From Prevotellaceae bacterium (GTDB lineage: Bacteria; Bacteroidota; Bacteroidia; Bacteroidales; Bacteroidaceae): a stretch of DNA of 64,000 nucleotides. The position numbers and the translations under genes are program-made. Positions 1,561-53,451 of this stretch are shown one piece after another; position 1 is the first letter of the stretch; the number at the start of each line of letters is the position of its first letter. The notes under the pieces are model-generated. The model made no database searches. It saw only the letters and a list, made by a program, of their open reading frames with translations, and was not told the origin of the DNA. The DNA lies in assembly GCA_029219385.1 (NCBI GenBank), contig JAQXTH010000006.1:16903-80902 (forward strand). The letters run 5' to 3'.

Positions 1561-1806
1561 AGTGAGGCAAAAATAAACAAAAAATTGCAGATATGTTGTT
1601 AAAGACTTAGTTTTTTAGTGTTGGTTTTGTCGAAAAGAGGTGAAGAGCGATAAAGATTATACAAGAAAATGTGGTGTAGACTTCATTGTAGACGAAATAG
1701 TGGAAAAATGTTGTTTGTTGCAAAGTTAGTGTTTTGGCTGAGAAAAAGGGTGTTTAGTGGTGAAATATTATTATCTTCGCACAATAGAACTAAAAAAATC
1801 AATATT

Positions 1807-3789: not shown

Positions 3790-3795
3790 TGGTTG

Positions 3796-36893: not shown

Positions 36894-37808
36894 ATGAAAC
36901 CAACACTTTTTCTTCTCGCAGCAGGAATGGGCAGTCGATATGGTGGTCTCAAACAGTTAGACACCCTCGGCCCTCATGGTGAAACCATCATGGACTATTC
37001 TATCTATGATGCAATCAAGGCCGGATTTGGCAAAATAGTATGGGTAATTCGCAAGGATTTTGAGGAGCAGTTCCGCAAACAGGTGCTTGCCAAGTATGAA
37101 GGTCATGTTCCCTGTGAACTTTGTTTTCAGGCTCTCGACGCACTGCCCGAGGGCTTTACCGTGCCCGAAGGACGCCAAAAACCCTGGGGAACCAATCATG
37201 CTGTGATGATGGGCAAGGATGTTGTTAAAGAACCGTTTGCTGTGCTCAACTGCGACGACTTCTACGACAGAGATGCTTTTATGGTTTTGGGAAAATTCCT
37301 CAGCGAATTGCCCGAGGGTAGCACCGGCAAATATGCCATGGTGGGTTTCCGTGTAGACAACACTTTGAGCGACAGTGGAACAGTGAGCCGTGGTATTTGC
37401 GAATACGACCCTGCAACACACCACCTCACCTCGGTTGTGGAACGCACCAAAATTGAACGCCACGATGGCATCGTGCAATATCTTGATGAAGAGGGCAACT
37501 GGGTAAGCATTCCCGACACCACTCCTGTCAGCATGAATTTCTGGGGTTTCACTCCCGACTATTTCCAACACAGCGAGGAATATTTCAAGGTTTTCCTTTC
37601 CGATCCCAAAAATCAGGAAAATCTCAAGAGCGAATTTTTCATTCCTCTTATGGTTGACCACCTCATCAAAACCGGCAAGGCAACTTGTGAAGTGCTCGAC
37701 ACCACTTCAAAGTGGTTTGGCGTGACATATCCCGAAGACCGTCCGGGCGTGGTTGAGAAATTTGCCAAACTTGCCGAGATTGGTCAATATCCCGAAAAGA
37801 TGTTCTAA
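36894..37808 (+). CDS. Nucleotidyltransferase (NTP_transferase fold, sugar-phosphate type)
   Basis: TLFLLAAGMGSRYGGLKQLDTLGPHGETIMDYSIYDA; VLNCDDFYDRDAF. Confidence 0.88.
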   Translation: MKPTLFLLAAGMGSRYGGLKQLDTLGPHGETIMDYSIYDAIKAGFGKIVWVIRKDFEEQFRKQVLAKYEGHVPCELCFQALDALPEGFTVPEGRQKPWGTNHAVMMGKDVVKEPFAVLNCDDFYDRDAFMVLGKFLSELPEGSTGKYAMVGFRVDNTLSDSGTVSRGICEYDPATHHLTSVVERTKIERHDGIVQYLDEEGNWVSIPDTTPVSMNFWGFTPDYFQHSEEYFKVFLSDPKNQENLKSEFFIPLMVDHLIKTGKATCEVLDTTSKWFGVTYPEDRPGVVEKFAKLAEIGQYPEKMF

Positions 37809-37827
37809 TTTTTTTTCATGTAATTAT

Positions 37828-37868
37828 AAGGGTCTGTTGCTCCTATAGGGGTGGCAGGCCCTTTTTTT
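37828..37868 (+). terminator. Terminator after the nucleotidyltransferase gene
   Basis: AAGGGTCTG...CAGGCCCTTTTTTT stem (one G-U-type mismatch) with T-run. Confidence 0.7.
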
Positions 37869-37890
37869 GGGGAAAAATGTCGCAGAATTT

Positions 37891-37989
37891 TATAGTTCTC
37901 TAACTTAGCGAACTAAAGCACCCTAAGTTAGCGTGCTATAACACCTTAAACTAAGAAACTATAGCACCCTAATTTAGGGAACTATAATT
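37891..37989. repeat. Mosaic palindromic repeat, copy 2
   Basis: ATAGTTCTCTAACTTAGCGAACTAAAGCACCCTAAGTTAGCGTGCTATAACACCTTAAACTAAGAAACTATAGCACCCTAATTTAGGGAACTATAAT; about 8 mismatches over 97 nt to copy 1 by eye. Confidence 0.9.
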
Positions 37990-37996
37990 CTCTTTT

Positions 37997-38024
37997 AAAA
38001 AAACGACCAAAAGGTCGTTTTTTT
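37997..38024 (-). terminator. Terminator downstream of manA
   Basis: AAAAAAACGACC-AAAA-GGTCGTTTTTTT. Confidence 0.85.
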
Positions 38025-38051
38025 GGGGTGTATGCTCTTGGAAGAAAGGGA

Positions 38052-39113
38052 TTATCTGCTTGTGAGATGAAAGAAGCGGTTAATTTTGTTGGCAATGCTC
38101 GTGTCAAGATTGTCGATAAATGTTTCTAAAATCTTTACTTTGCCATCAATGGGCACAATGTCGTAGTCAGCAAGTTCTGCAGGAATGAGACAACTGTTTC
38201 CCTCTCTTAAAGTGGTGGGGGTAGGATTGTTGCCCATGCGCGGTTTTATGGTGCAAGTGCCACTCAGACACACAGTGATGACAAACGAGTCATATTTTAT
38301 CATGTTGCGGTGAAAAGACTTCTCCACGTCTATCACCCTGATGTTGAAAAACGGGCTTTTTATCACCGGTACAGCCTTTTGTGTCTTTTCCATATAGTGC
38401 ACACGATAATCATCGAGCACTTCATAGTCGATAGCTTCTTTTGCCTTGTCTATGTGCAATTCTCTTGGCTCTCCATTGATGTCTTTGCGGTTATAGTCAA
38501 AAATGCGATAGGTGAGGTCGCTGCTTTGCTGCACTTCAACCAACAGAATGCCGCCACAAATGGCATGCACCCTGCCCGACGGAATATAAAACACATCGCC
38601 CGTTTTCACTTCGTGGCGTGCCAAAACATCGCAAATGCTGCCGTCTTTGGTGCGGCAGGCAAACTCGTAGGGGGTGATATGCTCTTTGAAGCCCACAAAG
38701 AGGCTTGCGCCTGGTTCGGCATCAATTACATACCACATTTCGGTCTTGCCCCTTTTTCCGTGATGTTTCATGGCCATTTCATCGTTGGGATGCACCTGTA
38801 TGCTGAGGTCGTGGCGTGCGTCGATAAATTTCACCAACAAGGGCATTTCCCGCCCATACTTCTCAACCACGGATTTGCCAAGTATGCGTTCTCCGAATTG
38901 TTCGATGATTTCAGTGATTTTTGTTCCCCTATATTGGCCGTTGCTTATAATGCCGGGTCGTTCGTCAATGGCACTCACTTCCCAACTTTCGCCAATGGGT
39001 CGTTTGTCATCTTCGAGACCTTTCCATGCTTTGAGGCGCGACCCGCCCCAAACCACTTCTTTCATGTTGGGTTCAAACAAGAGGGGGTATAGTGTTATGT
39101 CTTTTGTTTCCAT
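38052..39113 (-). CDS. manA: Class I mannose-6-phosphate isomerase
   Basis: LLFEPNMKEVVWGGSRLKAW; LSIQVHPNDEMAMKHHGKRGKTEMWYVIDAEPGA; GDVFYIPSGRVHAICGG. Confidence 0.95.
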   Translation of the reverse strand: METKDITLYPLLFEPNMKEVVWGGSRLKAWKGLEDDKRPIGESWEVSAIDERPGIISNGQYRGTKITEIIEQFGERILGKSVVEKYGREMPLLVKFIDARHDLSIQVHPNDEMAMKHHGKRGKTEMWYVIDAEPGASLFVGFKEHITPYEFACRTKDGSICDVLARHEVKTGDVFYIPSGRVHAICGGILLVEVQQSSDLTYRIFDYNRKDINGEPRELHIDKAKEAIDYEVLDDYRVHYMEKTQKAVPVIKSPFFNIRVIDVEKSFHRNMIKYDSFVITVCLSGTCTIKPRMGNNPTPTTLREGNSCLIPAELADYDIVPIDGKVKILETFIDNLDTSIANKINRFFHLTSR

Positions 39114-39137
39114 CTGAGAGGTGGAGTGTGGATTGCC

Positions 39138-40217
39138 TTACATTATGTCATCGCCAAACTTCAGTTTTGCATCATTCATTATTCGCCTCACGAGGGCAGG
39201 ATCGTCTTTTTTGCAAATCATCAGCATTTTGTCGTTTTCTACCACGATATATCCCTCCAGCCCTTGTGCCACGACCACTTTGTCAGACGAAGAATAGAAG
39301 AGGTTCTCCTTGCAGTCGTAGAGCAGGTTGCGCGAACCGAGTGCAACGTTTTTGTGAGCGTCTTTTTGGTGAAGGTCATAATAGTTTTTCCATGTGCCTA
39401 CATCTGCCCAACCAAAGTCGCAGGGAGAGATGTAGACATTTTCGGCATGTTCTAAGATTAGCATATCAATAGATTGAAACCTTATGCGCGCATATTGTTC
39501 TTCCATCACGCGACTCGCGTCTTCAACCACAATCGAACCGTTTACGAGAGCTGCCATCTTTTTCACATAGGGATAGTCTTCTTCCATTGCACGGAGCATG
39601 GTGTTTACTTTCCAGATAAAAATGCCGGTGTTCCAATAAAACTCACCGCTGTCGCAGAATATGCGTGCAAAGTCGATGTTGGGCTTCTCCGTGAAACTTT
39701 TCAGTTTCATAAATCCATCGATATTTTCTTCGCCTATTTGCAGATAGCCATAACTTGTGGCAGGGCGTGTGGGCTTGATGCCAACGGCCACGAAATTGCC
39801 CGTTTCATCGACAAATTTCAGTCCTCGCGCCATTTGGTTTTCAAACGACACAACATCATATATAATCTGGTCGGCAGGTGCGGAAATAACGTTGGCTTCG
39901 GGGTTGCGCCCAACAATGTGCATGAGGGTGAGAGCCGTGGCAGGCACGGTGTTGATTTGCAGAGGCTCGGCAATGATATGCTTGGGGTCAACTTCGGGCA
40001 GTTGTGCGCAGACGAGTTCTGTGTATTCTTTATAAGTGCTGATATATATATTTTCGGGCGGCACAAGTTTTGAATACCTGTCGTAGGTCATTTGAAGCAT
40101 AGTGCGCCCCATGGCAAAAAGGTCGAGGAACTGTTTTGGCTTTTTCGACAGACTGATAGGCCAAAGTTTCGAACCTATACCTCCCGCCAAAATAATGCAG
40201 AAATTGTTTTTGTTCAT
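39138..40217 (-). CDS. manC: Mannose-1-phosphate guanylyltransferase
   Basis: NNFCIILAGGIGSKLWPISLSKKPKQFLDL; APADQIIYD; FTEKPN; FGWADVGTWKNYYDL. Start at M 40217. Confidence 0.94.
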   Translation of the reverse strand: MNKNNFCIILAGGIGSKLWPISLSKKPKQFLDLFAMGRTMLQMTYDRYSKLVPPENIYISTYKEYTELVCAQLPEVDPKHIIAEPLQINTVPATALTLMHIVGRNPEANVISAPADQIIYDVVSFENQMARGLKFVDETGNFVAVGIKPTRPATSYGYLQIGEENIDGFMKLKSFTEKPNIDFARIFCDSGEFYWNTGIFIWKVNTMLRAMEEDYPYVKKMAALVNGSIVVEDASRVMEEQYARIRFQSIDMLILEHAENVYISPCDFGWADVGTWKNYYDLHQKDAHKNVALGSRNLLYDCKENLFYSSSDKVVVAQGLEGYIVVENDKMLMICKKDDPALVRRIMNDAKLKFGDDIM

Positions 40218-40452
40218 AACCAATGCGTTTAAGGGTTGTTGTTCTGTTTGCGTTGCTAAGTTAGGCATTTTTCCATAACCGCAAAGATTTTTTGTGCTAA
40301 AAAACGTAATGCCAAACAAAATTATGCAAACGTTATTTTCTTGTTTCTTTAAAAGGCAAGGACCTTTCATGCCTGTCTTTTCGAGCAGAGTGAAATATAA
40401 TAAGCGATTTGGGTCAAAACGAGACTATTTTGGCAAAAAAGTCTTCAAAAAA

Positions 40453-40508: not shown

Positions 40509-40590
40509 GCCCAGATGGCGGAATTGGTAGACGCGTTGGTCTCAAACACCAATGCCGCAAGGCGTGCCGGTTCGATCCCGGCTCTGGGTA
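40509..40590 (+). tRNA. tRNA-Leu (CAA)
   Basis: GCCCAGATGGCGGAATTGGTAGACGCG; anticodon arm TTGGT-CTCAAAC-ACCAA; T arm GCCGG-TTCGATC-CCGGC; acceptor TCTGGGT. Confidence 0.95.
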
Positions 40591-40591
40591 C

Positions 40592-40627
40592 AAAAAAAGG
40601 GAGCGGAGTAATCTGCTCCCTTTTTTG
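40592..40627 (+). terminator. tRNA terminator
   Basis: AAAAAAAGGGAGC-GGAGTAATCT-GCTCCCTTTTTT. Confidence 0.88.
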
Positions 40628-40722
40628 TGTTTATAGATTTCGCAGAGATGTGTGGAGATACATATAATATTAGCGCAGCTGTCTAAGAGAATCAGTTCGG
40701 CTTCTCAATGAATAATATGACT

Positions 40723-41295
40723 TTAAATGAACTTAATCAACTTGTGTATTATTAGCTTAATTGAAGATGTCGTATTGTATAGTGATGTCTCATGACTTTT
40801 TAGAAATTCTGTAGTAACCTGAAATCTCTTCTCGTCGAAAAACTCACCACCAGTAACCCATTTATAATACGTAGTTGTTAATTCCAGCAAATTCGCTCCC
40901 TTTGTTTTCTCTAAAAACTTAGGAAAAGATTCCTTTATTTCCTTATTTATACAGTCAATAATAAGATCTGCTTTGTGAAATATCATTCTAACTTCTTTCC
41001 TTGCCACTTCTAATTGTATTTCTCCTTTTTGGAGCTTTGAGAAAATCTCCGAGTTGTGTTCATACAAAGCTGATAGTTCTTTTAAATCAGTCACGACAAT
41101 ATCTCGAACAATATCTTTTTTGTTTAAGGCCTTTGTTAAATAAATTACAGCAATCGAAAGAACTATTGTTGCGACTAGCATTAATAAGTCAACAATATTC
41201 ACTTTGAAATCCCATATTCCTTGTATAAAGAGTATAACCATGGCAGAAACAAAGCAACCAGATAGAAAACCAAATAGGCCTATTAAAAACTTCAT
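40723..41295 (-). CDS. Hypothetical membrane protein (two N-terminal TM helices, helical cytosolic domain)
   Basis: MKFLIGLFGFLSGCFVSAMVILFIQGIW...VDLLMLVATIVLSIAVIYLT...; last gene of the island operon. Confidence 0.75.
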   Translation of the reverse strand: MKFLIGLFGFLSGCFVSAMVILFIQGIWDFKVNIVDLLMLVATIVLSIAVIYLTKALNKKDIVRDIVVTDLKELSALYEHNSEIFSKLQKGEIQLEVARKEVRMIFHKADLIIDCINKEIKESFPKFLEKTKGANLLELTTTYYKWVTGGEFFDEKRFQVTTEFLKSHETSLYNTTSSIKLIIHKLIKFI

Positions 41296-41296
41296 A

Positions 41297-41626
41297 CTAT
41301 TTCTTCGTAGGATTCTTAATTTCTTCTATAATTCTTTCCTTTCTAGTCTCGCTTTCTGTTGAAATAAAGACTATCGTATCAAGTACAACATTGGCACTGT
41401 ATTCTATTGATAGTTTCCCGAACGAACCAGAAACAAATGAAGAAGGATAACCCCATACCCCATCAAGGTTTATTTCCAACTTCACACCACGTTGCCTTGC
41501 TTCCTCAAATTTGTTTTTGAGGATTTCTTCATAAAACTGTTGACCAGAGTTTGGTCCATCTTTCCGATACCTAGCACCTGGTGAATCGGAAAAGTCATTT
41601 TTGATGTTAATGCAAATATTATCCAT
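41297..41626 (-). CDS. STAS-like protein (DUF4325)
   Basis: GARYRKDGPNSGQQFYEEILKNKFEEARQRGVKLEINLDGVWGYPSSFVSGSFGKL; overlaps the upstream gene by 8 nt. Confidence 0.7.
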   Translation of the reverse strand: MDNICINIKNDFSDSPGARYRKDGPNSGQQFYEEILKNKFEEARQRGVKLEINLDGVWGYPSSFVSGSFGKLSIEYSANVVLDTIVFISTESETRKERIIEEIKNPTKK

Positions 41627-42662
41627 TTGTTTGATCTTTTATAAGTTCCCAATATAAACACGTTCCTTGAAAATTGCTTTTAAGCTTTTCCGCATCTCTT
41701 GTTTTGAGATTAATTTTAACATCATTACTGATGATATAAGCTCTTCCAAAAACGTGCTGTTGACTATTTCTAGCAATTTGAGGAATTCCTTTTCCTCTTA
41801 TATTGTTATCTATAATCTCCCGAGACTTTATTTTCCCATCTAGCAAATCTTGTACCAAATCTACATTATGTGAAATTCCTATCCAATTTGTCAATTTCTT
41901 ATATTTACTTACAGGTAAGCTATCAAAAATACCAACCCCAAGGTCTATAAATGAATAGCACGTCTTTCCGTCAGGGTCATTATAGGTGTAAAGCCACCAC
42001 TTAGTGGTACCTGCTTGTTTCTTATTTGCGTGGTTGTTAGTGTTAGACATTGCTTCGACAATCATTTCATATAAATCGGAAAAAGGTTCTGTACTTGAAA
42101 ATACATGCTTCGTTCCATAAAGACATGCTTGCTTTGCAATTTCTGGTTGTACTTGAAAATGACTTTCTTTGTGCAGTAAGTTAACGTCCTGCTTTTGTGC
42201 TGACTTCATAAGTTTGCTTGAACTGACAAACTTATAAAACCCTGACTCTGCAAAGAGTTTAAGTAGTTTTGGTTTTTTTGGAGCATTGCCTGACAATTTA
42301 CCATATTTCCCATAAAAATGAGCATCATTAGCACAAGCAACTAATAAGGCTATTGCATCTGGAGAAAGGTTCTGGACATTTTCGATATCCATTATTACTT
42401 TTTCCTTTTTATGCAATAAAGATTTGCAGTCATTAATGTAGCTTACAACCGCATCTGTGTTATCGATAAGAGAAAAATTACTTGGCGAAACCTTTGTAAT
42501 ATCTTTCTTCTCATTAACACGTTTTCTCTCTGCAATATCTAGTTTTCGTGACAAAAGTCTTCTACGTCGCCTCCTTATTGCAAGGAGATGGCGTTTCTTC
42601 ATTTCAGACCTCTCACGCGAAAGCTGATGCTTATAAGCCTTATATCGTTTACTTTTTCTCAT
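41619..42662 (-). CDS. STAS-like domain plus GHKL/HATPase domain protein
   Basis: N-terminal basic region; VIMDIENVQNLSPDAIALLVACANDA...FAESGFYKF (STAS-like); IVEAMSNTNNHAN (N box); FIDLGVGIFDSLP (G1 box); GKGIPQIARN (G2-like). Confidence 0.7.
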   Translation of the reverse strand: MRKSKRYKAYKHQLSRERSEMKKRHLLAIRRRRRRLLSRKLDIAERKRVNEKKDITKVSPSNFSLIDNTDAVVSYINDCKSLLHKKEKVIMDIENVQNLSPDAIALLVACANDAHFYGKYGKLSGNAPKKPKLLKLFAESGFYKFVSSSKLMKSAQKQDVNLLHKESHFQVQPEIAKQACLYGTKHVFSSTEPFSDLYEMIVEAMSNTNNHANKKQAGTTKWWLYTYNDPDGKTCYSFIDLGVGIFDSLPVSKYKKLTNWIGISHNVDLVQDLLDGKIKSREIIDNNIRGKGIPQIARNSQQHVFGRAYIISNDVKINLKTRDAEKLKSNFQGTCLYWELIKDQTNG

Positions 42663-42691
42663 TCAGACATTATAAGGACTACTATCTACTA

Positions 42692-44290
42692 TTATTCAAG
42701 TATTATTTCCCAGAAACCGCCTTTATCGGGACCTACACGATGGAGAAACTTACCACGCATGGCTTCGATATTGCGATAAATCGAAGTTTCGCTAATTCCG
42801 ACGTTATTTGCCAACTCTGCTCTCGAGATATACGGATCTTCTATCATCAGTTCTAATATCTTGATTCTATTAGCTGTTAATGTCTCTCCCAATGCAGCTG
42901 CCTTTTTTCTCAACTTTTCTGTTACTTTGCCATGATTTTCTGCTACCTTTTCTGCTACCTTATTATGGTTTTCTGCTACCTTTCTACCGTTTTCTGTGAC
43001 GTTTACATTCACCCTTTCATCATTTACATTCACCTTTTCACTCACCTTTGGCACTGTAATCTTCAGGATGAACTCGTCAGTCCTAAAAGATGGAATATTC
43101 GCACCATTAGCCTCTTGCTCACGATAGATACGGTCAAAACCCTCGCCGAATTCCTTCACAAAATGATATGCTTTGAGGAATGCAGCTATTTTGGGATTAC
43201 GAGAGAAGTGGGTATGCCGGATATTGTTAGGTTTTACTTGTCCTGGGAGTTTGCCCGGAGACTCGAACACCAACCGATCATCAAACATTTTGATTTGTAT
43301 CTCCGTGCCCTTAATGTTGTAGGCTCGATGGCAACAAGCGTTGACTGTCATCTCTTGAATGACAAACTCAGGATAGTCACGTTTTGTCACGAACTGGGCA
43401 TGTTGTCCTAGAAACGTATGCTCACGAACCTGCGTCTCGATAAACTCAATCGTCTTCTTGACTTGGTTCAAGATGGTTCCCTCAAATGTAACATCCTTGA
43501 TGACATTCATCTCAGCACCCACCTTCTCGTCAACACCTTCATATCTGATGAAACGTGTGCGGGCACGAGGGAAGAACTTCTGGGGATACTTGCCAAAGAG
43601 AAGAATGCAAGCGGTGCTCACCTTCTCTTCACCATTGACCTCCGGTCGAGCCTGCTCACGCTCGGCTGAGCTGATGCGAGCATCGCTCTGCTCTCGTTTA
43701 ATCGCAGCCTTCTTGTTGGGCTTCACAAAACCATTGTTCTCTCGCAAGTATTGCAGGGGACTTTTCCCATAGCCGACCAATTTGGCATAGTCGGCAACGG
43801 CATCCATGTCAATGTCATCGATGGTTGCGTCATATACTGCTGTATCTTCGTAGTAGCGTTCCCCTTTGTCGTACATCAGCTGCACTCGCTCGTCAAACGT
43901 TAGTTTCCGGCTCTTGTCACCTACACGCATAAAGGCTTCATCTGCCTGGTTGGTATGCAGGCTCGAGCTGGCAGGAATCTCCATCAATAGGATACGGTTC
44001 TCGTTCCCATCCTTATCCGTGCAAGGAAGGTATGAGCAAGTCACAGGAACCGATGGATTGCAGAAATCAAACGGCACACGCAGCAGTTCGTTCAACTTCT
44101 CTGTATGCTGGTCAACACCTTCAATCTTCCGAGTCTTATCCGACACGCCTATGGCAATAACACCACCATCAGCATTGGCAAATGCTACAATGGGCACAGC
44201 CAAAGCCTTCGGCTCTATTTGAATGCTCTTGCAATCAAATGTCTGGTCTTCCTTGCGAGTAGTTATTTCTTGTATGGTCATCATAAGCAT
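42692..44290 (-). CDS. AlbA_2/Schlafen-like ATP-binding protein with repetitive linker and C-terminal winged HTH
   Basis: EDQTFDCKSIQIEPKALAVPIVAFANADGGVIAIGVSDKTRKIEG (AlbA_2); ANRIKILELMIEDPYISRAELANNVGISETSIYRNIEAMRGKFLHRVGPDKGGFW (wHTH). Confidence 0.85.
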   Translation of the reverse strand: MLMMTIQEITTRKEDQTFDCKSIQIEPKALAVPIVAFANADGGVIAIGVSDKTRKIEGVDQHTEKLNELLRVPFDFCNPSVPVTCSYLPCTDKDGNENRILLMEIPASSSLHTNQADEAFMRVGDKSRKLTFDERVQLMYDKGERYYEDTAVYDATIDDIDMDAVADYAKLVGYGKSPLQYLRENNGFVKPNKKAAIKREQSDARISSAEREQARPEVNGEEKVSTACILLFGKYPQKFFPRARTRFIRYEGVDEKVGAEMNVIKDVTFEGTILNQVKKTIEFIETQVREHTFLGQHAQFVTKRDYPEFVIQEMTVNACCHRAYNIKGTEIQIKMFDDRLVFESPGKLPGQVKPNNIRHTHFSRNPKIAAFLKAYHFVKEFGEGFDRIYREQEANGANIPSFRTDEFILKITVPKVSEKVNVNDERVNVNVTENGRKVAENHNKVAEKVAENHGKVTEKLRKKAAALGETLTANRIKILELMIEDPYISRAELANNVGISETSIYRNIEAMRGKFLHRVGPDKGGFWEIILE

Positions 44291-45021
44291 TAATAAACTA
44301 TTGGGAATTCTTGAACTATTTTTCCATTTATAAGTTTGCCATTTTTCCTTTTATTACGTTTAATTCCATCACATCCCCATGTTCCCCATTGTTTAAAAAA
44401 GAATGGTATGTTTAGTTGATGAGCTTGGTTCATTATGTTTACGACCCATTTTTCATTCATGGGCCTAGCAGAAACACCACTTTCACCACCAACAATAATC
44501 CAATTTATTCCATCTAGTTCCAATTCTCCTAAATCTTCCAGAAGGGGCTCACATGATAAAAATTTCACTTTCGCATCAAGGTGTCTAATTGAATCAATCC
44601 GTTCAATAGCATTCCTATTTTCTACAGTAACACCGATCCATGCGTTAGGTGGAATAACTCTGCTTTCAAAATACTCTGCCATCCGCTTCGCTCTTTTCGT
44701 TAGTATTTGATATGTATGTTGAGGAGTATCTTTAATAACGTTAAACACCTTGTCAATGAAATTAAAAGAAATTTTCTCATTGAACAAATCGCTCATAGAG
44801 CAGACAAAAACAGTTGATTGCTTTCTCCAGTTGTATGGTTCCAACAAATCTTCCGGATGTTCTGTGGGTATGAAGTTGTTCGCATACTTTGGATTACCCA
44901 TAGCAAACAAACGCCTTGTCATCATCTCTGCATAACAATGACGACATCCTTCAGAAATCTTATTACACCCTGTGACTGGATTCCAGGTTCGTTCTGTCCA
45001 TTCTATTTTGGTTGTTCTCAT
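44290..45021 (-). CDS. DUF5131 / phage Gp37-Gp68 family three-Cys-motif protein
   Basis: IEWTERTWNPVTGCNKISEGCRHCYAEMMTRRL; NWIIVGGESGVSARPM. Confidence 0.9.
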   Translation of the reverse strand: MRTTKIEWTERTWNPVTGCNKISEGCRHCYAEMMTRRLFAMGNPKYANNFIPTEHPEDLLEPYNWRKQSTVFVCSMSDLFNEKISFNFIDKVFNVIKDTPQHTYQILTKRAKRMAEYFESRVIPPNAWIGVTVENRNAIERIDSIRHLDAKVKFLSCEPLLEDLGELELDGINWIIVGGESGVSARPMNEKWVVNIMNQAHQLNIPFFFKQWGTWGCDGIKRNKRKNGKLINGKIVQEFPIVY

Positions 45022-46172
45022 TTCAGTTCTATTTTATATATATTTGCCTTATGAATATTTGTTGCCTGTTTGTTGTAAGTGCCCAAAATCTTAACTCTAT
45101 TCTCTTTTATCATAGAATCCATTACTTCAACAAACAATTTGGGCTCACAGCCGCATTCTAAGGCATAATCCAATCCTGTAATATTGTCTTTAATGGTAGA
45201 ATGAAGTATTTTTTCTTTGATTTCCTTAATTATACGTGTCTTCTTATTTGTATATAGTGGGTCGTAAAACAGTGTACCAGGTTCAAAATCATTATAAAGA
45301 TTACAATTTGACTCTCCTGCTTGTCTATCTTCCTTCCAACAAACCTTGACAAACTTTTCCATTCCTAGCGAATGAGCAGAACCAAAAATTAGCCCATAGT
45401 AATTGCTTCCTTTTTGAATTGTAAAAGAATGTAGATAATACTTTTTATCTACAGGAATCAAACTCCTAAAATAATCCGTTATAACCTTATGACATTCCTT
45501 TGGTTGTGTTTCATCAAATGAAATTTTATTTTTTTTGAAATAGGCTGTAACAGCAGGTAAATCCTTAAATCGTTTAATAAAAGAAGATGCTATGAAGAAG
45601 ATAAAGTCTGTTGTCGGTGAATTAACCAATTTAAGAAAAACATCATCATTAATTTGCTTAAAACCATATTGATCAAGCAAAATAAATTTTGCATATTTTG
45701 CATTGGACAATATCTGATTTAATCTTCTGTTGTTAATCAATGAGGAGAAATCTTGTGATTCAAAAAAGAATGCATTTTGAAAAGGACATACCTTTTCTAT
45801 ACATTGTGATTTGCATAGAGTAAATTCTGCCGACACATTAGATTCTAGTTCTGTCCTCTTAACTTCATCTAATTCATTATAACCAAATGTAATAAATGGG
45901 ATTCCTCTCTTCAACAATGATTTGCAATGTTGCCGTTTATCACCTCGCGCTTCTTGGAAAAGTATGATTGGAGATCCTGGGTGTTGGGCGATATCTTTAC
46001 CACTTCCAGCAAACATATCATATACAAATATGTGCGAGATGAATTTGTTGTGAACAAACACAGGGTACCATTCACGGAAACATTGCCGAAATATTTCTAA
46101 TTTCAGCATTGTTTCTTCAGTAAATACATCTTTATTTATATCCTTTTTAGCCATATAGCCTAATCCACTCAA
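45018..46172 (-). CDS. tcmP: Three-Cys-motif partner protein TcmP
   Basis: KLEIFRQCFREWYPVFVHNKFISHIFVYDMFAGSGKDIAQHPGSPIILFQEA; KFILLDQYGFKQI; overlaps the DUF5131 start by 4 nt. Confidence 0.85.
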   Translation of the reverse strand: MSGLGYMAKKDINKDVFTEETMLKLEIFRQCFREWYPVFVHNKFISHIFVYDMFAGSGKDIAQHPGSPIILFQEARGDKRQHCKSLLKRGIPFITFGYNELDEVKRTELESNVSAEFTLCKSQCIEKVCPFQNAFFFESQDFSSLINNRRLNQILSNAKYAKFILLDQYGFKQINDDVFLKLVNSPTTDFIFFIASSFIKRFKDLPAVTAYFKKNKISFDETQPKECHKVITDYFRSLIPVDKKYYLHSFTIQKGSNYYGLIFGSAHSLGMEKFVKVCWKEDRQAGESNCNLYNDFEPGTLFYDPLYTNKKTRIIKEIKEKILHSTIKDNITGLDYALECGCEPKLFVEVMDSMIKENRVKILGTYNKQATNIHKANIYKIELK

Positions 46173-46177
46173 TCTAA

Positions 46178-47035
46178 TTATTCCAATTGCTTTCTATATA
46201 CAGCATCTAATGTTTGGCCGTCTTTATCTTTCCAGACGAGCCAACCGTTATTGCTACTACCAATGCAGAAGTCGGCAGCTGTGCTGGGGCTTGGGAAAGT
46301 CTTGTCTGATTCCAATTCCAACTTGTCACCATTGTTGATGGTATAATCCTTGAGAAGATTCTCACGTTTCTCTTTCCATGTAAACGATGGAACAGACGAC
46401 TTTGCAATAATGCTACCCTTTAAAACTGTAAATCCATTAGCATCATAGAAACCTTTGGCGTTACAACCACGCCCCTTAGTATAGAACAGATGCTCTTCCT
46501 TTGGCTTTGCCACATCAAATATATTGCAACCAATAAAAGATGTTAGGAACTTCACATCTTCAAAGAATCCCTCCATATCATCTTTTCTATACTCAGGTAG
46601 ATTAGGTGCCTTTGGCGTTTGCTTATTCTCATTTAGCACAAAATTATTGGAAGCCTTTGCCTCTGCGATTGCCCTATGCTCCAAGTATTGCACATCAGCC
46701 TTTGTCATCGCAGCATCTTTCGAGATAAACAGCAATGCCTTTTGCCAAAACACCTTTTTGCTATCGTGGTCTTTAACGCGTTCACGAAAGTTCTCCGTTT
46801 CACCAATGTAAGCCTTTGGCTTGGTTGCCTCATCCTCACCCAATAAGATATAAAATGCAGGTGTCTGCAACTCCTGTCGCTCATTCAGAATAGAAAGATT
46901 AGAACGAGGAATCACATACATCTGGCAAATCTTATTGCTGATGAACACATACTGAGTCCCCTTCGGATCTCCATCTATCAAATATGTCGTTACTGTTTTG
47001 CCCATGAGACTATATTTCAATTTATGCGTTTCCAA
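46178..47035 (-). CDS. GIY-YIG nuclease-family protein with C-terminal DUF4357
   Basis: FYILLGEDEATKPKAYIGETENFRERVKDHDSKKVFWQKALLFIS; LEHRAIAEAKASNNF; C-terminal AADFCIGSSNNGWLVWKDKDGQTLDAVYR. Confidence 0.85.
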   Translation of the reverse strand: METHKLKYSLMGKTVTTYLIDGDPKGTQYVFISNKICQMYVIPRSNLSILNERQELQTPAFYILLGEDEATKPKAYIGETENFRERVKDHDSKKVFWQKALLFISKDAAMTKADVQYLEHRAIAEAKASNNFVLNENKQTPKAPNLPEYRKDDMEGFFEDVKFLTSFIGCNIFDVAKPKEEHLFYTKGRGCNAKGFYDANGFTVLKGSIIAKSSVPSFTWKEKRENLLKDYTINNGDKLELESDKTFPSPSTAADFCIGSSNNGWLVWKDKDGQTLDAVYRKQLE

Positions 47036-48635
47036 AAATCTCAGATTCCAATTCTTTATATATTTGTGTATCTTCTGTAATTAATGGAACTATTGTATCC
47101 CTAAGGAAAGCATCTTTTGTGTTTCCACATTTCGTTAATAACAATAATCGCTTTAGTTCTGTATAGATCTTTCCACTTGCGGATTTTATATCGTCTGTAG
47201 GATTGCCTCTTCCAATACTTTCAGTTATCGCTTGTTTCTTAAAGTTAAGGCACTCTGTAATTTTGTCTTCTTGACTCAGAGAAGTGCATAACTTTGTGAT
47301 TATCTCGTCATCTAAAAGATAGCATTCTATATGTCGCTTGTTTAGTACTTTAATACCTTTTGTTTTCAAATCATTTATTTCTCCTTCACTTTTATCATCT
47401 CGATCTACAAATTTTATTATTGTAGAATTTTTAAGAACTTGTGAGATGATTTTCATACTAATGTTGTTTTCATCTTCAAGTTCAGAACAAGAACCAATTG
47501 ACACAAATGAAGTATCAGGGTATTTTGAGGCAAAAATACGACTATAAATCTGAGCATCAAAATTCTTATAGGCTCTTCCTTGTACAGTTCCTTCACAAAA
47601 AACAACTCTTTGTGGAGCAATCAATTTCGCAAAGTCACCAAATGCAAGTTCTAAGAATTTATTCCAGATAGTAGCATCTATAGTTGAAGGTCGAATAACG
47701 ACAGAAGCATCGAAATCCATATCTGTAAAATTCAAAAAGCAAACTGTATTTGGATATTTTTCTTCCAATTCTTTTGCAGCTTTAAGCATTCCAATGGAAT
47801 GAGTTGATAACCATAATTGGGAGTTATTAGGAATTAAATTGTACAATTCAGACAACAATTTTGCTTGTAAAGCTGTATGCATATGAGTTTCCGGCTCATC
47901 AATACAATATACGGTATTATCAAAATAAGTAGCCTTGATTACCAAATCAAGCAATAAATCAAAAGCCGATTTTTCACCAGCAGATAGGTTCTTGTAATGG
48001 AAACTTTCAGAACGTCCTTTCGTGAAATAGAAACTGCCATTAGCAAGTGGATCTCCGATGGAGGCTAATTGCAAATCATCAAAAACATTATTAAGCGAAT
48101 TCTTTATTTTACCAGTCAATTCTTCTCTCAGGTCTTTTACAGACTTATTGTCATTCTTTGAGTTAAAGACTCCAGACAATGTATTTGATACCAACCTTTG
48201 GTAATTCTCTGATACGGACATGTCTGTATTCATCAAAGTATCAAATTTCATTTGATCTTTAGGATTACCGAGCCGTGATAAGCTTGATGTTGTAAAATCC
48301 GGTTCATTTCTATGGGCAGTACGAAAATAAAAACGTCCATGAATACTATTGCGATCATTCAAATCTGTGTCGTATGTCGATAATTGTACTTGATGAGAAT
48401 ACCAGTCACCATTTTCTTCTGTCTCTATATCACTTTTTTTGAAGTAATAATCTTTATTGCCAACTCTGTTAAAACCACGCCATTTATACCAATGGTTCAG
48501 GGCTTCAAATACAGAGGTTTTACCACACCCATTAGGTCCTACAAGAATAACAAGCTTTGCAGTTTGAGGAATTCCTGTAATAGTTAGATCTGTAAATCGC
48601 TTGAACTTATTTAATTTGACTTCTCTTATTTTCAT
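47022..48635 (-). CDS. AAA ATPase fused to a TOPRIM/DUF4435-like C-terminal domain (OLD/PARIS-like architecture)
   Basis: LVGPNGCGKTSVFEAL (Walker A), LSAGEKSAFDLLL, YCIDEPETHMH (Walker B), LWLSTHS; C-terminal VVFCEGTVQGRAY...IIKFVDRDDKSEGEI...RHIECYLLDDEI. Confidence 0.8.
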   Translation of the reverse strand: MKIREVKLNKFKRFTDLTITGIPQTAKLVILVGPNGCGKTSVFEALNHWYKWRGFNRVGNKDYYFKKSDIETEENGDWYSHQVQLSTYDTDLNDRNSIHGRFYFRTAHRNEPDFTTSSLSRLGNPKDQMKFDTLMNTDMSVSENYQRLVSNTLSGVFNSKNDNKSVKDLREELTGKIKNSLNNVFDDLQLASIGDPLANGSFYFTKGRSESFHYKNLSAGEKSAFDLLLDLVIKATYFDNTVYCIDEPETHMHTALQAKLLSELYNLIPNNSQLWLSTHSIGMLKAAKELEEKYPNTVCFLNFTDMDFDASVVIRPSTIDATIWNKFLELAFGDFAKLIAPQRVVFCEGTVQGRAYKNFDAQIYSRIFASKYPDTSFVSIGSCSELEDENNISMKIISQVLKNSTIIKFVDRDDKSEGEINDLKTKGIKVLNKRHIECYLLDDEIITKLCTSLSQEDKITECLNFKKQAITESIGRGNPTDDIKSASGKIYTELKRLLLLTKCGNTKDAFLRDTIVPLITEDTQIYKELESEIFGNA

Positions 48636-48726
48636 TCTTTATCCTCCCATCTTTTTATAATGCGAAGAAATCTGTCTTGCATTATCTTTTTTAGTATTGG
48701 ACATCATGATAGAGTCTTTACCTTTT

Positions 48727-51700
48727 CTACTTCAAATACTTATCCAAAATTTTTTGCTTCACAACTATATAATCTTGCATTTTTTTCTTCAGGTCAGCTA
48801 TCTCATTCTCCAGTTTAATGAGCTGTTGAGCCACTTTGTTCTGCGTTTCAATGTCTGGCAACATGATAGAGAGAGCTTTGACACGTTCTGTTGACGAACG
48901 GTTAGAACGTGAGAACCGTTCCGCCTCACCTGCTTTCAGAAGAGGATAGACCAAATACTTTGGATTGACAACGGTTTCATCCAGGACTCTGATTACGCCA
49001 CAATGGTCTGTTGGATTGAACGGTTTTTCGGCCTCTTGGTAATTAACCATCCAGTCGCCATCTATGCCCCATAGAACAGATGGCTTCGAAAAGTCAGAAA
49101 GCACAGAGTTACTGGTTTTACCAAATGGCTCAAACACATTGGCACTAAACACGTCATACACTCCGTCTTTCACAATATCAGACTTTAAGACACGGCGGCC
49201 AATGGATATATCAAACAAGTCTGCACGGTTGAGACTGATGGAATTGTTGGTCTTCATCTGCGATTGACGCATCAATTCTTCGATTTCCTTTTCTATCTCA
49301 ATTATACGAGACGAAGCATTGATATAATCGTTGTCTTGCTCTTGACATTCCTCTGCGATTTTTCTTTGCACCTCCACAAGTGGAGCCTTCGGTATTAAGA
49401 AGTTTGGTATGACCTTCTTGTCACCACGAGGCATCTTTAGTCCAGTTTTTCCTACCATCATGTAGTCGAAGAAAATGTCAGATGAAAGGATTGCATACAG
49501 GTATTCTGACAAATAATCTGATGGCTTGGCATTTCTGAACACAAGAACATCATTTGAACACCCTCCGTCGTGTTCGGCAAGCCATATCTTTTTTAGATAA
49601 GGTCTGATGTTTGAAACCAGAATATCATCCTTTTGATACTTTGTTACATTACCTACCTCGGGCACATCGTTATATGGAGTTATTCCTGCACGATTTTGCA
49701 GCATGTTGGCTGTCGTTACATAACTTGACGGTGATATGCTAGAATATGCTACCTTTTCAGAAATATATGGGCTTACAACGCCTAATTTTTCTAATGGGTA
49801 TTTGCTTTGTATCTGGGGATATGATAGAACCGGGGTTGTCTTGATAGACTTTGAAAAGTCTGCCCGTTTGAAATCAATTAAATCTGCAAGATCATATACT
49901 TCAACATAATCCATCAACTCATCAGGAACAGAAACTTCTCCATTCGCGAAGTTTTGTCGTATTATGGAGTTAATCTTCAAATCATCTTCCAAATCTTGTG
50001 GATTGAATAAGGGCGTTTGAATACCCTTTATACCTTCAATTTGATGCATAGTGTCATCGTCTTCTCCATTGCCTTCATCGTCAGAGGTACTTTGCGTTGA
50101 AACATTCAAATACTTAATACCCTCGTTGCCCTTGCTGTCACTCCATTCATAACCCAAGAATCGCTTAATGTTTGTTGTTCCTGAGGGCGACTTGACGATA
50201 ACCACAGGATTGGGCGTAATTTTTGCTAATATGAAATAATATACCTTTTCTTTCTCGATGGCAATGACGAATTGCAAGAAAGCTTTAGTTCCTTGCCTTT
50301 TCTTTTCATCCTCAGATAGTTTTCTATATGCTTGAGTATCTTGGCGGCCCTTGAATTTTGCCCTGATTTCCTTTGCTTGGGTACAAACTCCCTTCATCGC
50401 GTTGCGTTGATTGCCAAAGAAGGCTGTCTTATAGGCTTGGATGGTATCATGTTCCATAAAGTTCTCCGTCATATTGCCAGAAAGGAATGCATGATAATCT
50501 TCCCAATTGAAATCGCAGTGGTCACAATATGCTTGCAGCAAATCTGTGTCATCATAGATGTCATTGGACTCGCACTTTTCATAATTACAGAACCAGCAAT
50601 TAACCCTATTCTGATAGTGCTCTGCATCGGGCGTATTGGTTTCCTTGCGTCGTAAGAACATCGTAACAGTATTGGTTCCTGTCTTGCCAAACGTTCCACT
50701 ACCAAACTCTACCAAAGCCACGATGTCGAACTTTTGGAGAATTATTTCACGCCCCTTGGCATAAATGCCACCTTTGTTTAGAACAGAGACAGGAAGTATG
50801 ATACCTGCAACACCACCTGCCTTTAATAACTGGGCAGCACGCTCGATAAAGAATATCTCAATGGCATTATTCTTGGCAATATTAAGGCCATCATTGAAGA
50901 GAGAATAATGCTTTCGTTGACTCTCCGTCAGGGTCTCTAAGAAACCTTTAACCGAATAAGGTGGATTAGCTATCAGAACATCGTATGACGCCTCTCTAAC
51001 ATTTTCATTTGGAACCAAAGCATCAGAATAAATTATCTTCGTCTCATCATGACCATACATGAAGGCAGAAACCTTAGACACCTTAGACAGGCGGTATTCC
51101 TTTTCTATACCTGTGATATGTGCATAATACTCATTTAATGGTATTGAGGGACGATACTTCTCCACGTAATCTTTTATCTGTACTGCATATTCTGTCAAGA
51201 AATGTCCTGCGCCACAAGCGTAGTCTATAGCAGAAGGGATATCCTCGCAGTTCTGAATAATCCGTTCCAAAGGAAGTGAAGAAACGAGGAAGCGCACTAT
51301 TGGCATAGGCGTGAAGAATTGGCCTTCGCTCTGCTTGACACCTTTATTCAGGAAACCTTCAAACAAATCGCCAAGCAACTGGTTTTGATCAGAGTCTTTC
51401 AGTTTAATGTCCTGTAACATCTTGACCACCTTCAATAAAATGGCTGCATTCTGTTCAAAGAGTTTTTTATTGTGTACGCTGATGAAAGAAAAGTCGTTGT
51501 CAGAGAAGAACTTCAGGGCACGGAAATAGCTTTTGATGGTCTTTTTTGTCGCATCTGGGTCATTCTTGAATCGACGGAATGCTTTCTCAATCTCACCATC
51601 CTCTATGTAAGTAACATCTTCATTCAAGAAGCGTTTCATACCATCACGATAAAGACGCTGCAAGCGGTCTTGCAAGCGGTAATCATCATCATATGCAGAA

Positions 51701-52611
51701 CCTTTCCAGTAGAAATTCAAGTCATCAGGATTGCTTGTCTCATCCACGACTTTTGCAAGGAAGAGGTTCACCAGTTTGTCAAAAGCATTCTCATATCCTC
51801 CAACATTGTGTTGACGCAGAATCAAGGCGAACTCATTATACTTTTTCTGAATGGTATCGCTGTCAACAGACTTCAGGTCTTTTGTTGTGTACTTGTTCTT
51901 ACCAATTCTGTATGGTTCTATTTCGTCCTCGAAAAGACCTCGCGTTGCATAATCATCATGGTAGGTTTCATGCCATACTCTATAAAGTTTCTTGTTGTTG
52001 TCTGCATCTTTGTAGCTCCTAGCAGTTTCTTCATTGGCTAGTTTCTCTTCGTTATCTTGGACATTAATGAGATGATAATTTTGTTCTATCCTTCCATCAA
52101 TAATATCAGCAGTATATAGACAAAGGAACTTCGTGGAGCGTTCCTGTTGGAAATAACTAAAGAGTTGGGCACCATCTTCTTTTGTGTCTGCCCATGCTCC
52201 ATCAAACTCTCGTCCCCAAGTCTTACATTCAATAATCAACAAAGACTCCTTATCCTCGTCTGAGCCATCAAAACCACCATTTTTAAAGGTCCTGACCCAA
52301 ACATCCGCATAGCCACCTTTGGCTGTATGTCCCAATTTCCATGCAGGTTCTAACTCGATATGAATAGGATTGTAGCCTTTCCGTAAAAGGCGATCGACAC
52401 AATGTAACACGACAAGATTTTCTGGTTCCAAGAGATTGCAAGTCGTTTCTCGACCAATAGAAATACCACATTCGCTATAGAAGATATGTCCGTCACCACT
52501 AATATCAACCTTTAGTGGCTCGTTAACATTCTTATATTTTTTTGTATATATGTTGCCATCGTGCTCAAATTCAAGCAAGTTTAGCAATTCTTTAATATTG
52601 TCTTTAGTCAT
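48727..52611 (-). CDS. Single-chain restriction-modification enzyme: PD-(D/E)xK nuclease, N6-adenine methylase and HsdS-like specificity domains
   Basis: GGYADVWVR...SLLIIECKTWG (D..ExK); SEGQFFTPMPIVRFLV, AIDYACGAGHFLTEYA, DVLIANPPYSVKGF (N6 MTase); two C-terminal TRD-like segments each followed by a coiled coil. Confidence 0.9.
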   Translation of the reverse strand: MTKDNIKELLNLLEFEHDGNIYTKKYKNVNEPLKVDISGDGHIFYSECGISIGRETTCNLLEPENLVVLHCVDRLLRKGYNPIHIELEPAWKLGHTAKGGYADVWVRTFKNGGFDGSDEDKESLLIIECKTWGREFDGAWADTKEDGAQLFSYFQQERSTKFLCLYTADIIDGRIEQNYHLINVQDNEEKLANEETARSYKDADNNKKLYRVWHETYHDDYATRGLFEDEIEPYRIGKNKYTTKDLKSVDSDTIQKKYNEFALILRQHNVGGYENAFDKLVNLFLAKVVDETSNPDDLNFYWKGSAYDDDYRLQDRLQRLYRDGMKRFLNEDVTYIEDGEIEKAFRRFKNDPDATKKTIKSYFRALKFFSDNDFSFISVHNKKLFEQNAAILLKVVKMLQDIKLKDSDQNQLLGDLFEGFLNKGVKQSEGQFFTPMPIVRFLVSSLPLERIIQNCEDIPSAIDYACGAGHFLTEYAVQIKDYVEKYRPSIPLNEYYAHITGIEKEYRLSKVSKVSAFMYGHDETKIIYSDALVPNENVREASYDVLIANPPYSVKGFLETLTESQRKHYSLFNDGLNIAKNNAIEIFFIERAAQLLKAGGVAGIILPVSVLNKGGIYAKGREIILQKFDIVALVEFGSGTFGKTGTNTVTMFLRRKETNTPDAEHYQNRVNCWFCNYEKCESNDIYDDTDLLQAYCDHCDFNWEDYHAFLSGNMTENFMEHDTIQAYKTAFFGNQRNAMKGVCTQAKEIRAKFKGRQDTQAYRKLSEDEKKRQGTKAFLQFVIAIEKEKVYYFILAKITPNPVVIVKSPSGTTNIKRFLGYEWSDSKGNEGIKYLNVSTQSTSDDEGNGEDDDTMHQIEGIKGIQTPLFNPQDLEDDLKINSIIRQNFANGEVSVPDELMDYVEVYDLADLIDFKRADFSKSIKTTPVLSYPQIQSKYPLEKLGVVSPYISEKVAYSSISPSSYVTTANMLQNRAGITPYNDVPEVGNVTKYQKDDILVSNIRPYLKKIWLAEHDGGCSNDVLVFRNAKPSDYLSEYLYAILSSDIFFDYMMVGKTGLKMPRGDKKVIPNFLIPKAPLVEVQRKIAEECQEQDNDYINASSRIIEIEKEIEELMRQSQMKTNNSISLNRADLFDISIGRRVLKSDIVKDGVYDVFSANVFEPFGKTSNSVLSDFSKPSVLWGIDGDWMVNYQEAEKPFNPTDHCGVIRVLDETVVNPKYLVYPLLKAGEAERFSRSNRSSTERVKALSIMLPDIETQNKVAQQLIKLENEIADLKKKMQDYIVVKQKILDKYLK

Positions 52612-52670
52612 ATAGTGTGGTTTTCTTATTCCGTTCTATTTTTAGAAAAAAATACATCTCTTTTATGTAA

Positions 52671-53081
52671 TCATCCAATTTTGGCTGATTCAGATTCAGG
52701 TATAATGCCTCGTTCTGTGAGCATCTTATGCACAGCGGCATTATTATCGACATATTCCCGTGTGATGGATGCTTCGCCTTGGAGATTTTTTGATTGAATA
52801 TTTACATTGGTCATTTCATTCGCAAGATCTTTCGCCATTGTGTCAATACTCGATGTGATTTTCTTCTCAGCATCGAAATCCACTTCCAGCAGGTCTTTGA
52901 TGTCAACCTGTAACAGGCGAGCGATTTCTACGAATTGTGCCATGGAGGGCTGTATCTTGTTGGTTTTCCACCGTGAAACAGTCATGTCGGTGACACCCAT
53001 CTGTTCGGCAAGCCAACGGTTGGTGATTTGCTTGTCGGCCAATACCACTCTGATTCTGTTTTGGCAATCTTTCTTGGTCAT
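52671..53081 (-). CDS. XRE-family HTH regulator with DinD-like C-terminal tail
   Basis: NRWLAEQMGVTDMTVSRWKTNKIQPSMAQFVEIARLLQVDIKDLLEV (HTH); AKDLANEMTNVNIQSKNLQGEASITREYVDNNAAVHKMLTERGIIPE (DinD/BRO-type tail). Confidence 0.8.
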   Translation of the reverse strand: MTKKDCQNRIRVVLADKQITNRWLAEQMGVTDMTVSRWKTNKIQPSMAQFVEIARLLQVDIKDLLEVDFDAEKKITSSIDTMAKDLANEMTNVNIQSKNLQGEASITREYVDNNAAVHKMLTERGIIPESESAKIG

Positions 53082-53412
53082 CTATTTTGATTTTAGCTAT
53101 TTACATGTGCAAAAATAAACATAATTTGTTAAGCTGCCCAAGTTGATGTTGAATAATATCTCGTTTTTGGCACTTTTTGTGTTTCTAACTCCTTGTTTTG
53201 CATACGACCCGACAAAATTACACAGTGTCTTTTTGCATTTAGTACATCTCTTTGCTATATATGCGCAATGTGGACTAAACTTATTTCTCTTTCGCCAGTA
53301 AATGAATCAATGCTATAGGTTGAGTGTTGGCAGGCTGTTGATGGCGAAAAAGAATATCAACTTGTCATGATTTTACATCTGTAGAAAATCACTGTTTCGT
53401 TTTCTCATACAC

Positions 53413-53451
53413 AAAAAAGAGGATAAGCCACATCGGCTTATCCTCTTTTTT
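53413..53451 (-). terminator. Terminator downstream of mutB
   Basis: AAAAAAGAGGATAAGCC-ACATC-GGCTTATCCTCTTTTTT. Confidence 0.92.

What the first reader, a model, noticed from the sequence alone, without database searches (positions are those of the whole stretch)
40509..53451. tRNA-Leu-adjacent ~12.4 kb defence-type island in one operon-like array
Seen: tRNA-Leu(CAA) is followed by ten genes all on the minus strand with short gaps or overlaps, bounded on the right by spacer and the mutB terminator. The content (R-M-S enzyme, AAA-TOPRIM, GIY-YIG, TcmP/DUF5131, AlbA_2, HATPase/STAS) is accessory, while both flanks are core genes. Known: tRNA genes are common integration sites. Inference: this is a horizontally acquired multi-system defence island. 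No integrase or clear attR copy of the tRNA 3' end was seen, so it may be an immobilised or recombination-exchanged hotspot.
Basis: partly seen in the sequence, partly recalled or inferred. Interest (0 to 1): 0.7.

Follow-up and report, generated by a model that had tools for sequence, protein, structure and literature searches.

The report
Kinase-switch membrane module in defence island
A gut-type bacterium carries a borrowed block of ten likely anti-virus genes, and the last three form a widespread, previously unnamed three-gene switch in which a DNA-sensor-like kinase probably controls a small membrane protein that may act as a cell-stopping effector during phage attack.

Summary
In detail: tRNA-Leu(CAA) at 40509-40591, then ten tightly packed minus-strand genes (40723-53081), 38% G+C against 47-50% in the flanks. 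The genes tested are absent or only distantly matched in sister species. The content is a mosaic defence island: a IIG restriction-modification enzyme, an OLD-like ATPase, a GIY-YIG protein, the TcmP+DUF5131 candidate pair, an AlbA_2 protein, and a final trio. The tRNA-hotspot idea is not supported: no integrase, no att repeat, and flank order is not conserved in the genus. The most interesting part is the trio: a STAS-GHKL kinase (K), a DUF4325 STAS-like protein (S) and a membrane helical-bundle protein (M). K-S-M order recurs in 136 of 155 DUF4325 loci from Bacteroidota, Spirochaetota, Patescibacteria, Clostridia, Proteobacteria, plasmids and temperate phages. PADLOC and NCBIfam lack it; phage families call it unknown. 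The closest known systems are CapK/CapS and VapKSC (EMBO J 2026); the best solved-structure match of S is VapS. In K-S-M the PIN toxin VapC is replaced by a membrane protein, so it is not VapKSC but a new effector variant of the same switch. The mechanism (K phosphorylates S, S frees M) is inferred and untested.

The parts
40509..40591 (+). tRNA-Leu(CAA), left border of the island
   Evidence: ARAGORN; the manC-tRNA-Leu link is kept in sister genomes G001 (L054) and G018 (L260) but what follows differs
40593..40626 (.). terminator-like hairpin between the tRNA and the end of the operon
40723..41295 (-). M: 190-aa membrane-anchored helical-bundle protein (two N-terminal hydrophobic segments), third gene of the K-S-M module, proposed effector
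   Evidence: hydropathy; AlphaFold2 model pLDDT 90.9; no PIN or other Pfam domain above cut-off
41297..41626 (-). S: 109-aa DUF4325 STAS-like protein, proposed phospho-switch
   Evidence: PF14213 E=1.6e-9; family profile best PDB hit Escherichia VapS 9z7o, E=3.3e-4
41619..42662 (-). K: 347-aa basic-helix + STAS + GHKL (SpoIIAB/RsbW-like) kinase
   Evidence: AlphaFold2 pLDDT 89.9, three parts; N-box E203-x3-N207-x3-H211, G1 D240xGxG244, G2 G292; Foldseek hits to histidine-kinase ATPase domains and STAS antagonists
42692..44290 (-). SLFN AlbA_2 + HATPase_c_4 + winged-helix protein, 532 aa
   Evidence: Pfam PF04326 5.7e-19, PF13749 1.3e-19, PF13412 4.1e-8
44290..45021 (-). DUF5131 protein, 243 aa; PADLOC candidate PDC-M30B
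   Evidence: PF07505 4.8e-101; PDC-M30B 2e-111
45018..46172 (-). TcmP three-Cys-motif partner, 384 aa; PDC-M30A
   Evidence: TIGR04474 98.6 bits over cut-off 53; PDC-M30A 8.4e-107
46178..47035 (-). GIY-YIG + DUF4357 protein, 285 aa; PADLOC candidate PDC-S14
   Evidence: PDC-S14 3.7e-84; DUF4357 8.8e-19; relatives occur without the neighbouring ATPase
47022..48635 (-). AAA_21/AAA_15 ATPase with TOPRIM-like C-terminus (OLD/AriAB/PtuA-like), 537 aa
   Evidence: PF13304 5.1e-20; AriAB model 3.7e-33, ATPase-Toprim_I-B 8.2e-15
48727..52611 (-). Type IIG restriction-modification-specificity enzyme, 1294 aa
   Evidence: PADLOC REase_MTase_IIG, 1547 bits, residues 1-1294; N6_Mtase and Methylase_S
52671..53081 (-). 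XRE/Cro-type HTH protein, 136 aa, first gene of the operon
   Evidence: PF13443 4.2e-10
53413..53451 (-). terminator hairpin of mutB, right border
   Evidence: sequence read directly

Best explanation
The block is a horizontally acquired mosaic defence island probably read as one operon. Its last three genes are a self-contained module, called K-S-M here. K is a kinase with a nucleic-acid-binding-type basic helix, a STAS domain and a SpoIIAB/RsbW-like GHKL domain. S is a small STAS-like protein with an invariant serine at or next to the phospho-serine position of VapS. M is a membrane-anchored helical-bundle protein. The most likely mechanism follows CapKS and VapKSC. In quiet cells S binds M and keeps it inactive. 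A phage-associated signal, probably single-stranded or damaged DNA sensed by K, switches the kinase on. K phosphorylates S, S lets go of M, and M damages or depolarises the inner membrane, stopping the cell before phages are released. Shown by sequence and model: the architecture, the kinase motifs, the linkage, the spread on phages and plasmids, and the membrane segment. Inferred: the signal, the phosphorylation, the S-M binding and the membrane toxicity.
For: Module identity: 155 of 160 fetched loci give a DUF4325 ORF; 141 have K directly upstream and 136 have K-S plus a third gene. K-S and S-M genes usually overlap (112/141 and 103/148). Third genes: 147 of 155 (fetched loci plus the founding members) link into one family by phmmer, and 137 of those 147 have a hydrophobic N-terminal segment, against 1 of 137 for S. 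Distance matrices K-S, K-M and S-M correlate at r = 0.77, 0.86 and 0.69, above all 500 permutations. Kinase: E203 98%, N207 99%, D240 99%, G242 99%, G292 100% of 137; STAS and HATPase_c_2 Pfam hits in a homologue; confident model. DNA-sensor hint: the first 50 residues of K have median net charge +14 against +2 for other K windows. S: the only credible PDB hit is Escherichia VapS. M: all-helical model, no PIN. Defence context: neighbours of trios hit 273 PADLOC models in 150 proteins, against 5 models in 126 control proteins. Mobile context: Marinobacter phage AS1 beside a Cro/CI gene, annotated plasmids, and IMG/VR neighbours with CI, CII, integrase, portal and terminase. Precedent: CapKS and VapKSC biochemistry, PMC13373217.
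Against: No experiment exists for any K-S-M. Whether M is toxic, or binds S, is unknown; M could instead be a sensor. The VapS phospho-serine S48 aligns by sequence with position 62 (S/T in 83%, P in 12%), one residue before the invariant S63. The loci were retrieved with peptide patterns one of which contains S63 and F64, so their 100% conservation is partly built in; the window and the six members found through K also have them. Foldseek hits for K are E about 0.002 or weaker. Some loci duplicate each other, so counts are loci, not independent events. The PADLOC contrast counts models, not proteins, and uses one core-genome control.
Confidence: 0.55

Rival explanations
1. K-S-M is a signalling module in which M is the receptor, not the effector: M senses the envelope state and feeds K, and S controls another target such as transcription.
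For: M has a membrane anchor and a helical bundle; weak fold hits include chemoreceptor ligand domains such as Tar 2asr and PcaY 6s18. Known stressosome systems (RsbRST) use STAS-GHKL partners to pass signals (own knowledge).
Against: The basic N-terminal helix of K points to nucleic acid as its input. The gene order K-S-effector matches VapKSC. Fold hits are all E > 0.01 and mostly designed bundles.
Confidence: 0.2
2. The trio is a toxin-antitoxin or addiction module that stabilises mobile elements and is not mainly a defence system.
For: It sits on plasmids, phages and islands, and next to other toxin-antitoxin genes (MazEF-type in L229, HepT/nucleotidyltransferase in L068, NadS/RelE in L231).
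Against: VapKSC, the closest characterised relative, is both toxin-antitoxin-like and anti-phage. Chromosomal copies sit among restriction genes.
Confidence: 0.2
3. The ten genes form one co-operating ten-gene defence system rather than a mosaic.
For: One strand, overlaps and very short gaps through most of the array.
Against: GIY-YIG homologues (up to 78% identical) lie without the ATPase in all other loci seen. K-S-M stands alone in many genomes, for example beside tRNA-Ser in L064. Gene G+C varies from 0.31 to 0.46 within the array.
Confidence: 0.05
4. The island entered by site-specific integration into tRNA-Leu(CAA).
For: It starts 131 bp past the tRNA 3' end; the manC-tRNA-Leu link is kept in G001 and G018.
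Against: No integrase in the block, no second copy of the tRNA 3' end in the window, and no border repeat above 11 bp. The right flank, mutB, is not linked to this tRNA in relatives.
Confidence: 0.15

Closest known systems
VapKSC (VapK STAS-GHKL kinase, VapS STAS antitoxin, VapC PIN toxin; PMC13373217)
   Same: Three-gene operon with a STAS-GHKL kinase lacking an HTH, then a small STAS protein, then a third protein; the S profile finds VapS as its best solved structure; found near defence genes
   Different: The third protein is a membrane-anchored helical bundle, not a PIN nuclease; K has a long basic N-terminal helix; S is DUF4325 and the serine register differs by one residue in the sequence alignment
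CapK + CapS regulators (HTH-STAS-GHKL kinase and STAS-wHTH repressor; PMC13373217)
   Same: STAS-GHKL kinase next to a STAS substrate; association with restriction-modification genes
   Different: No HTH domain on K, no winged helix on S, and no downstream immune operon here
SpoIIAB/SpoIIAA and RsbW/RsbV partner switches
   Same: GHKL serine-kinase motifs and a STAS partner
   Different: No sigma factor gene among the ten genes; K has its own STAS domain; a membrane protein is the third member
PADLOC candidates PDC-M30 and PDC-S14, and Type IIG restriction-modification
   Same: TcmP+DUF5131, GIY-YIG and the IIG enzyme in the same island match these models at nearly full length
   Different: No difference detected by sequence; ordinary members

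Membership tests
VapKSC | VapK: STAS and GHKL domains without an HTH | tested here: met
   AlphaFold2 model with helix 5-51, STAS 54-140, GHKL 173-340; GHKL motifs; STAS and HATPase_c_2 hits in homologue L063
VapKSC | VapS: STAS domain with a conserved Ser/Thr that is phosphorylated | tested here: inconclusive
   STAS relationship to VapS met; the position aligned with S48 is S/T in 83%, while the next residue S63 is invariant; phosphorylation not tested
VapKSC | VapC-like PIN nuclease as third gene | tested here: not met
   40 third genes: no PIN hit; all-helical model
VapKSC | Kinase activation by single-stranded DNA and protection against phage | not testable with these tools
   needs biochemistry and plaque assays
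CapK/CapS | N-terminal HTH on the kinase and C-terminal wHTH on the STAS protein | tested here: not met
   K begins with one long helix; S is 109 aa, DUF4325 over residues 27-93
CapK/CapS | Immediately upstream of an immune operon on the same strand | tested here: not met
   K-S-M is the 3' end of the operon; the next feature is the tRNA
Type IIG restriction-modification | Single polypeptide with nuclease, N6-methylase and specificity regions | tested here: met
   PADLOC REase_MTase_IIG aligned over residues 1-1294, E=0
PDC-M30 (TcmP + DUF5131) | Adjacent TcmP and DUF5131 genes | tested here: met
   4-bp overlap
tRNA-integrated genomic island | Integrase plus direct repeat of the tRNA 3' end | tested here: not met
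   no integrase among the ten genes; no border repeat above 11 bp, no second tRNA 3' end

The most novel reading that the evidence does not exclude
K-S-M is an unrecognised, cross-phylum anti-phage system in which a nucleic-acid-sensing STAS-GHKL kinase releases a membrane effector from a DUF4325 inhibitor. It would show that the CapK/VapK kinase-switch cassette is exchanged among transcription repressors, nucleases and membrane effectors.
Probability: 0.45. Interest if true: 0.8.

Novelty: new variant of a known kind. Interest (0 to 1): 0.64.

Why it matters
A GHKL-STAS kinase switch controlling immune genes was described only in 2026, with two outputs: a repressor and a PIN toxin. K-S-M appears to be a third output, a membrane protein. 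It is carried by temperate phages, plasmids and chromosomal defence islands in several phyla, and the defence and phage family libraries searched hold its parts only as unknown or not at all. If the mechanism holds, proteins now labelled 'unknown function' (DUF4325, phrog_3364) gain a testable role, and defence annotation tools gain a missing system.

Tried and rejected
The tRNA hotspot was tested by comparing manC, mutB and tRNA-Leu(CAA) surroundings in congeners and not supported. An OLD-type ATPase + GIY-YIG two-gene system, suggested by the 14-bp overlap, was rejected because GIY-YIG homologues never sit beside the ATPase elsewhere. M as a PIN toxin was rejected. Fold searches of M against PDB and viral models gave only generic helical bundles. 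A direct VapK comparison failed: no VapK sequence was available, and a VapS search of plasmids gave one weak hit without a kinase. A seven-row alignment of K was too diverse for the collection scan. No E. coli carrier was found by DNA similarity. A viral-contig scan with the window kinase alone found nothing. Sigma-70 promoter scanning gave no more hits than shuffles and does not cover Bacteroidota promoters.

Full report
Observation. ARAGORN finds tRNA-Leu(CAA) at 40509-40591 and the ORF list gives ten minus-strand genes from 53081 down to 40723. Gaps between them are short or negative. G+C drops to 0.38 against 0.47 and 0.50 in the flanks.

Content. Profile searches give, in transcription order: an XRE HTH protein; a full-length Type IIG restriction enzyme (PADLOC, 1547 bits); an AAA/TOPRIM-like ATPase; a GIY-YIG + DUF4357 protein (PDC-S14); TcmP and DUF5131 (PDC-M30A/B); an AlbA_2-HATPase_c_4-winged-helix protein; and three last genes for which PADLOC and NCBIfam have no convincing model (the membrane protein has only a weak N-terminal ZorB match, E=0.00046, 17.9 bits). 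Pfam knows one of these three, as DUF4325.

Is it an acquired island? In 18 congeners TcmP is absent and the IIG enzyme has one 42% relative. The kinase-like gene is absent from all other members of the genus searched and has a single 30% relative among 60 relatives. Some of these genomes are incomplete (63-99%). Per-gene G+C ranges from 0.31 to 0.46, and GIY-YIG homologues up to 78% identical occur without the ATPase. This fits a mosaic of independently mobile modules. The genome belongs to the same family group as Bacteroides ihuae, because G200 contig 3 and NZ_FNVX01000005.1 have the same length and match coordinates; that assignment is an inference.

Is it a tRNA hotspot? manC and mutB lie apart in relatives. 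Downstream of mutB the genes differ from relative to relative. manC-tRNA-Leu is kept in G001 and G018, but in G001 core genes (an FtsX-like permease, RbfA, MetRS) follow. No integrase, no second tRNA end and no border repeat above 11 bp were found. Gene order is heavily rearranged within the genus, so integration and rearrangement cannot be told apart.

The final trio. A search for the 347-aa protein in 393 genomes of the order found four other carriers, and a plasmid search found a Leptospira interrogans plasmid. All have the same order: kinase-like protein, DUF4325, small protein usually with an N-terminal hydrophobic segment. One trio sits alone beside tRNA-Ser (L064) and one beside a BsuBI/PstI restriction gene. 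A scan of GTDB genomes with five DUF4325 proteins gave 378 relatives and IMG/VR gave 238; 80 of each were fetched. Of 155 loci with a DUF4325 ORF, 141 have the kinase directly upstream and 136 have the full trio. Record titles include Bacteroidota, Fibrobacter, Treponema, Clostridia and Oscillospiraceae, several Patescibacteria, Hydrogenimonas and a gammaproteobacterium.

K. The AlphaFold2 model (61 sequences, pLDDT 89.9) has a long helix 5-51, a STAS-like part 54-140 and a GHKL part 173-340. Foldseek returns histidine-kinase ATPase domains and STAS antagonists, at modest E-values; the profile search returns RsbW, SpoIIAB and a STAS antagonist at or beyond the edge of significance. The N-box, G1 and G2 residues are nearly invariant in 137 sequences; K was not the bait of that scan, so this is not built in. 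The first 50 residues are strongly basic: median +14 against +2 elsewhere in K.

S. The family profile has one credible hit in the PDB, Escherichia VapS (9z7o, E=3.3e-4). From the alignment, VapS chain residue 66 (S48 after subtracting an 18-residue tag, an inference from the chain length of 134 and the stated 116 residues) aligns with position 62, one before the invariant S63. Position 62 is S or T in 83% and P in 12%. Which serine is modified is open. One search pattern contains the S63-F64 motif, so its full conservation among the fetched loci is partly built in; the six members found through K also have it.

M. Third genes form one family by single linkage (147 of 155), with a hydrophobic N-terminal segment in 137 of 147, no PIN domain, and a confident all-helical model (pLDDT 90.9) without a specific structural relative. 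K, S and M distances correlate strongly, although shared ancestry contributes to this.

Context. Immediate neighbours of the fetched genome trios match 273 PADLOC models in 150 proteins (specificity subunits, GmrSD-type HEC-06, methylases), against 5 models in 126 proteins from the mutB/manC regions of relatives; Pfam adds recombinases, integrases, TIR and Fic. In viral contigs the neighbours include CI-like repressors, CII-like activators, integrases, portal and terminase proteins, and in Marinobacter phage AS1 the trio lies near a Cro/CI gene. PHROGs holds K (phrog_3364) and S (phrog_5816) as unknown function and has no M. No PADLOC model hits any of 61 K proteins at 1e-5.

Known systems. 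CapK/CapS and VapKSC were described in June 2026 (PMC13373217). [quoted passage not shown] VapS holds the PIN toxin VapC in check, and mutating VapK, VapS or VapC abolishes protection against phage Bas42. The authors searched for vapKSC by requiring vapC nearby, which would pass over K-S-M. A search for follow-up papers found none in the held library, and DUF4325 is mentioned in two held papers, neither about defence by title. The library lacks preprints and most subscription journals, so absence there is weak evidence of novelty.

Verdict. The island is an ordinary mosaic defence island in a rearranged region. Its last module is a widespread K-S-M cassette that works most probably like VapKSC with a membrane effector. 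It is not a member of VapKSC because the PIN toxin is absent. Architecture and linkage are well supported; signal, phosphorylation and effector action are inferred.

Noticed in passing
L299 (Vibrio vulnificus NZ_CP015514.1), locus 1719-4339: A DUF4325 gene on the megaplasmid has no kinase upstream; it follows divergent ImmA/IrrE-type and hypothetical genes and precedes a 126-aa hypothetical. It may be another use of the STAS-like protein.
   Followed up: no
window 41297-41626 and L188 7965-8333: PHROG family phrog_5816 is 441 positions long with DUF4325 only at its C-terminal end (about 339-441), so some phages may fuse S to another protein, possibly K.
   Followed up: no
L065 199-483 and window 52671-53081: In genome G329 a small HTH gene 45% identical to the window's HTH lies head to head with the K-S-M trio; the HTH may be a regulator shared between such loci.
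   Followed up: no
window 36894-40370 and congeners G007, G011, G016: Gene order in this genus is strongly rearranged: tRNA-Leu(CAA) and manC have different neighbours in nearly every relative.
   Followed up: partly
window 42692-44290: The AlbA_2 gene has host-like G+C (0.456) amid genes of mostly 0.31-0.41, and its best PADLOC match is the N-terminal half of a pAgo model (5.6e-30), probably through the AlbA_2 and ATPase regions.
   Followed up: no
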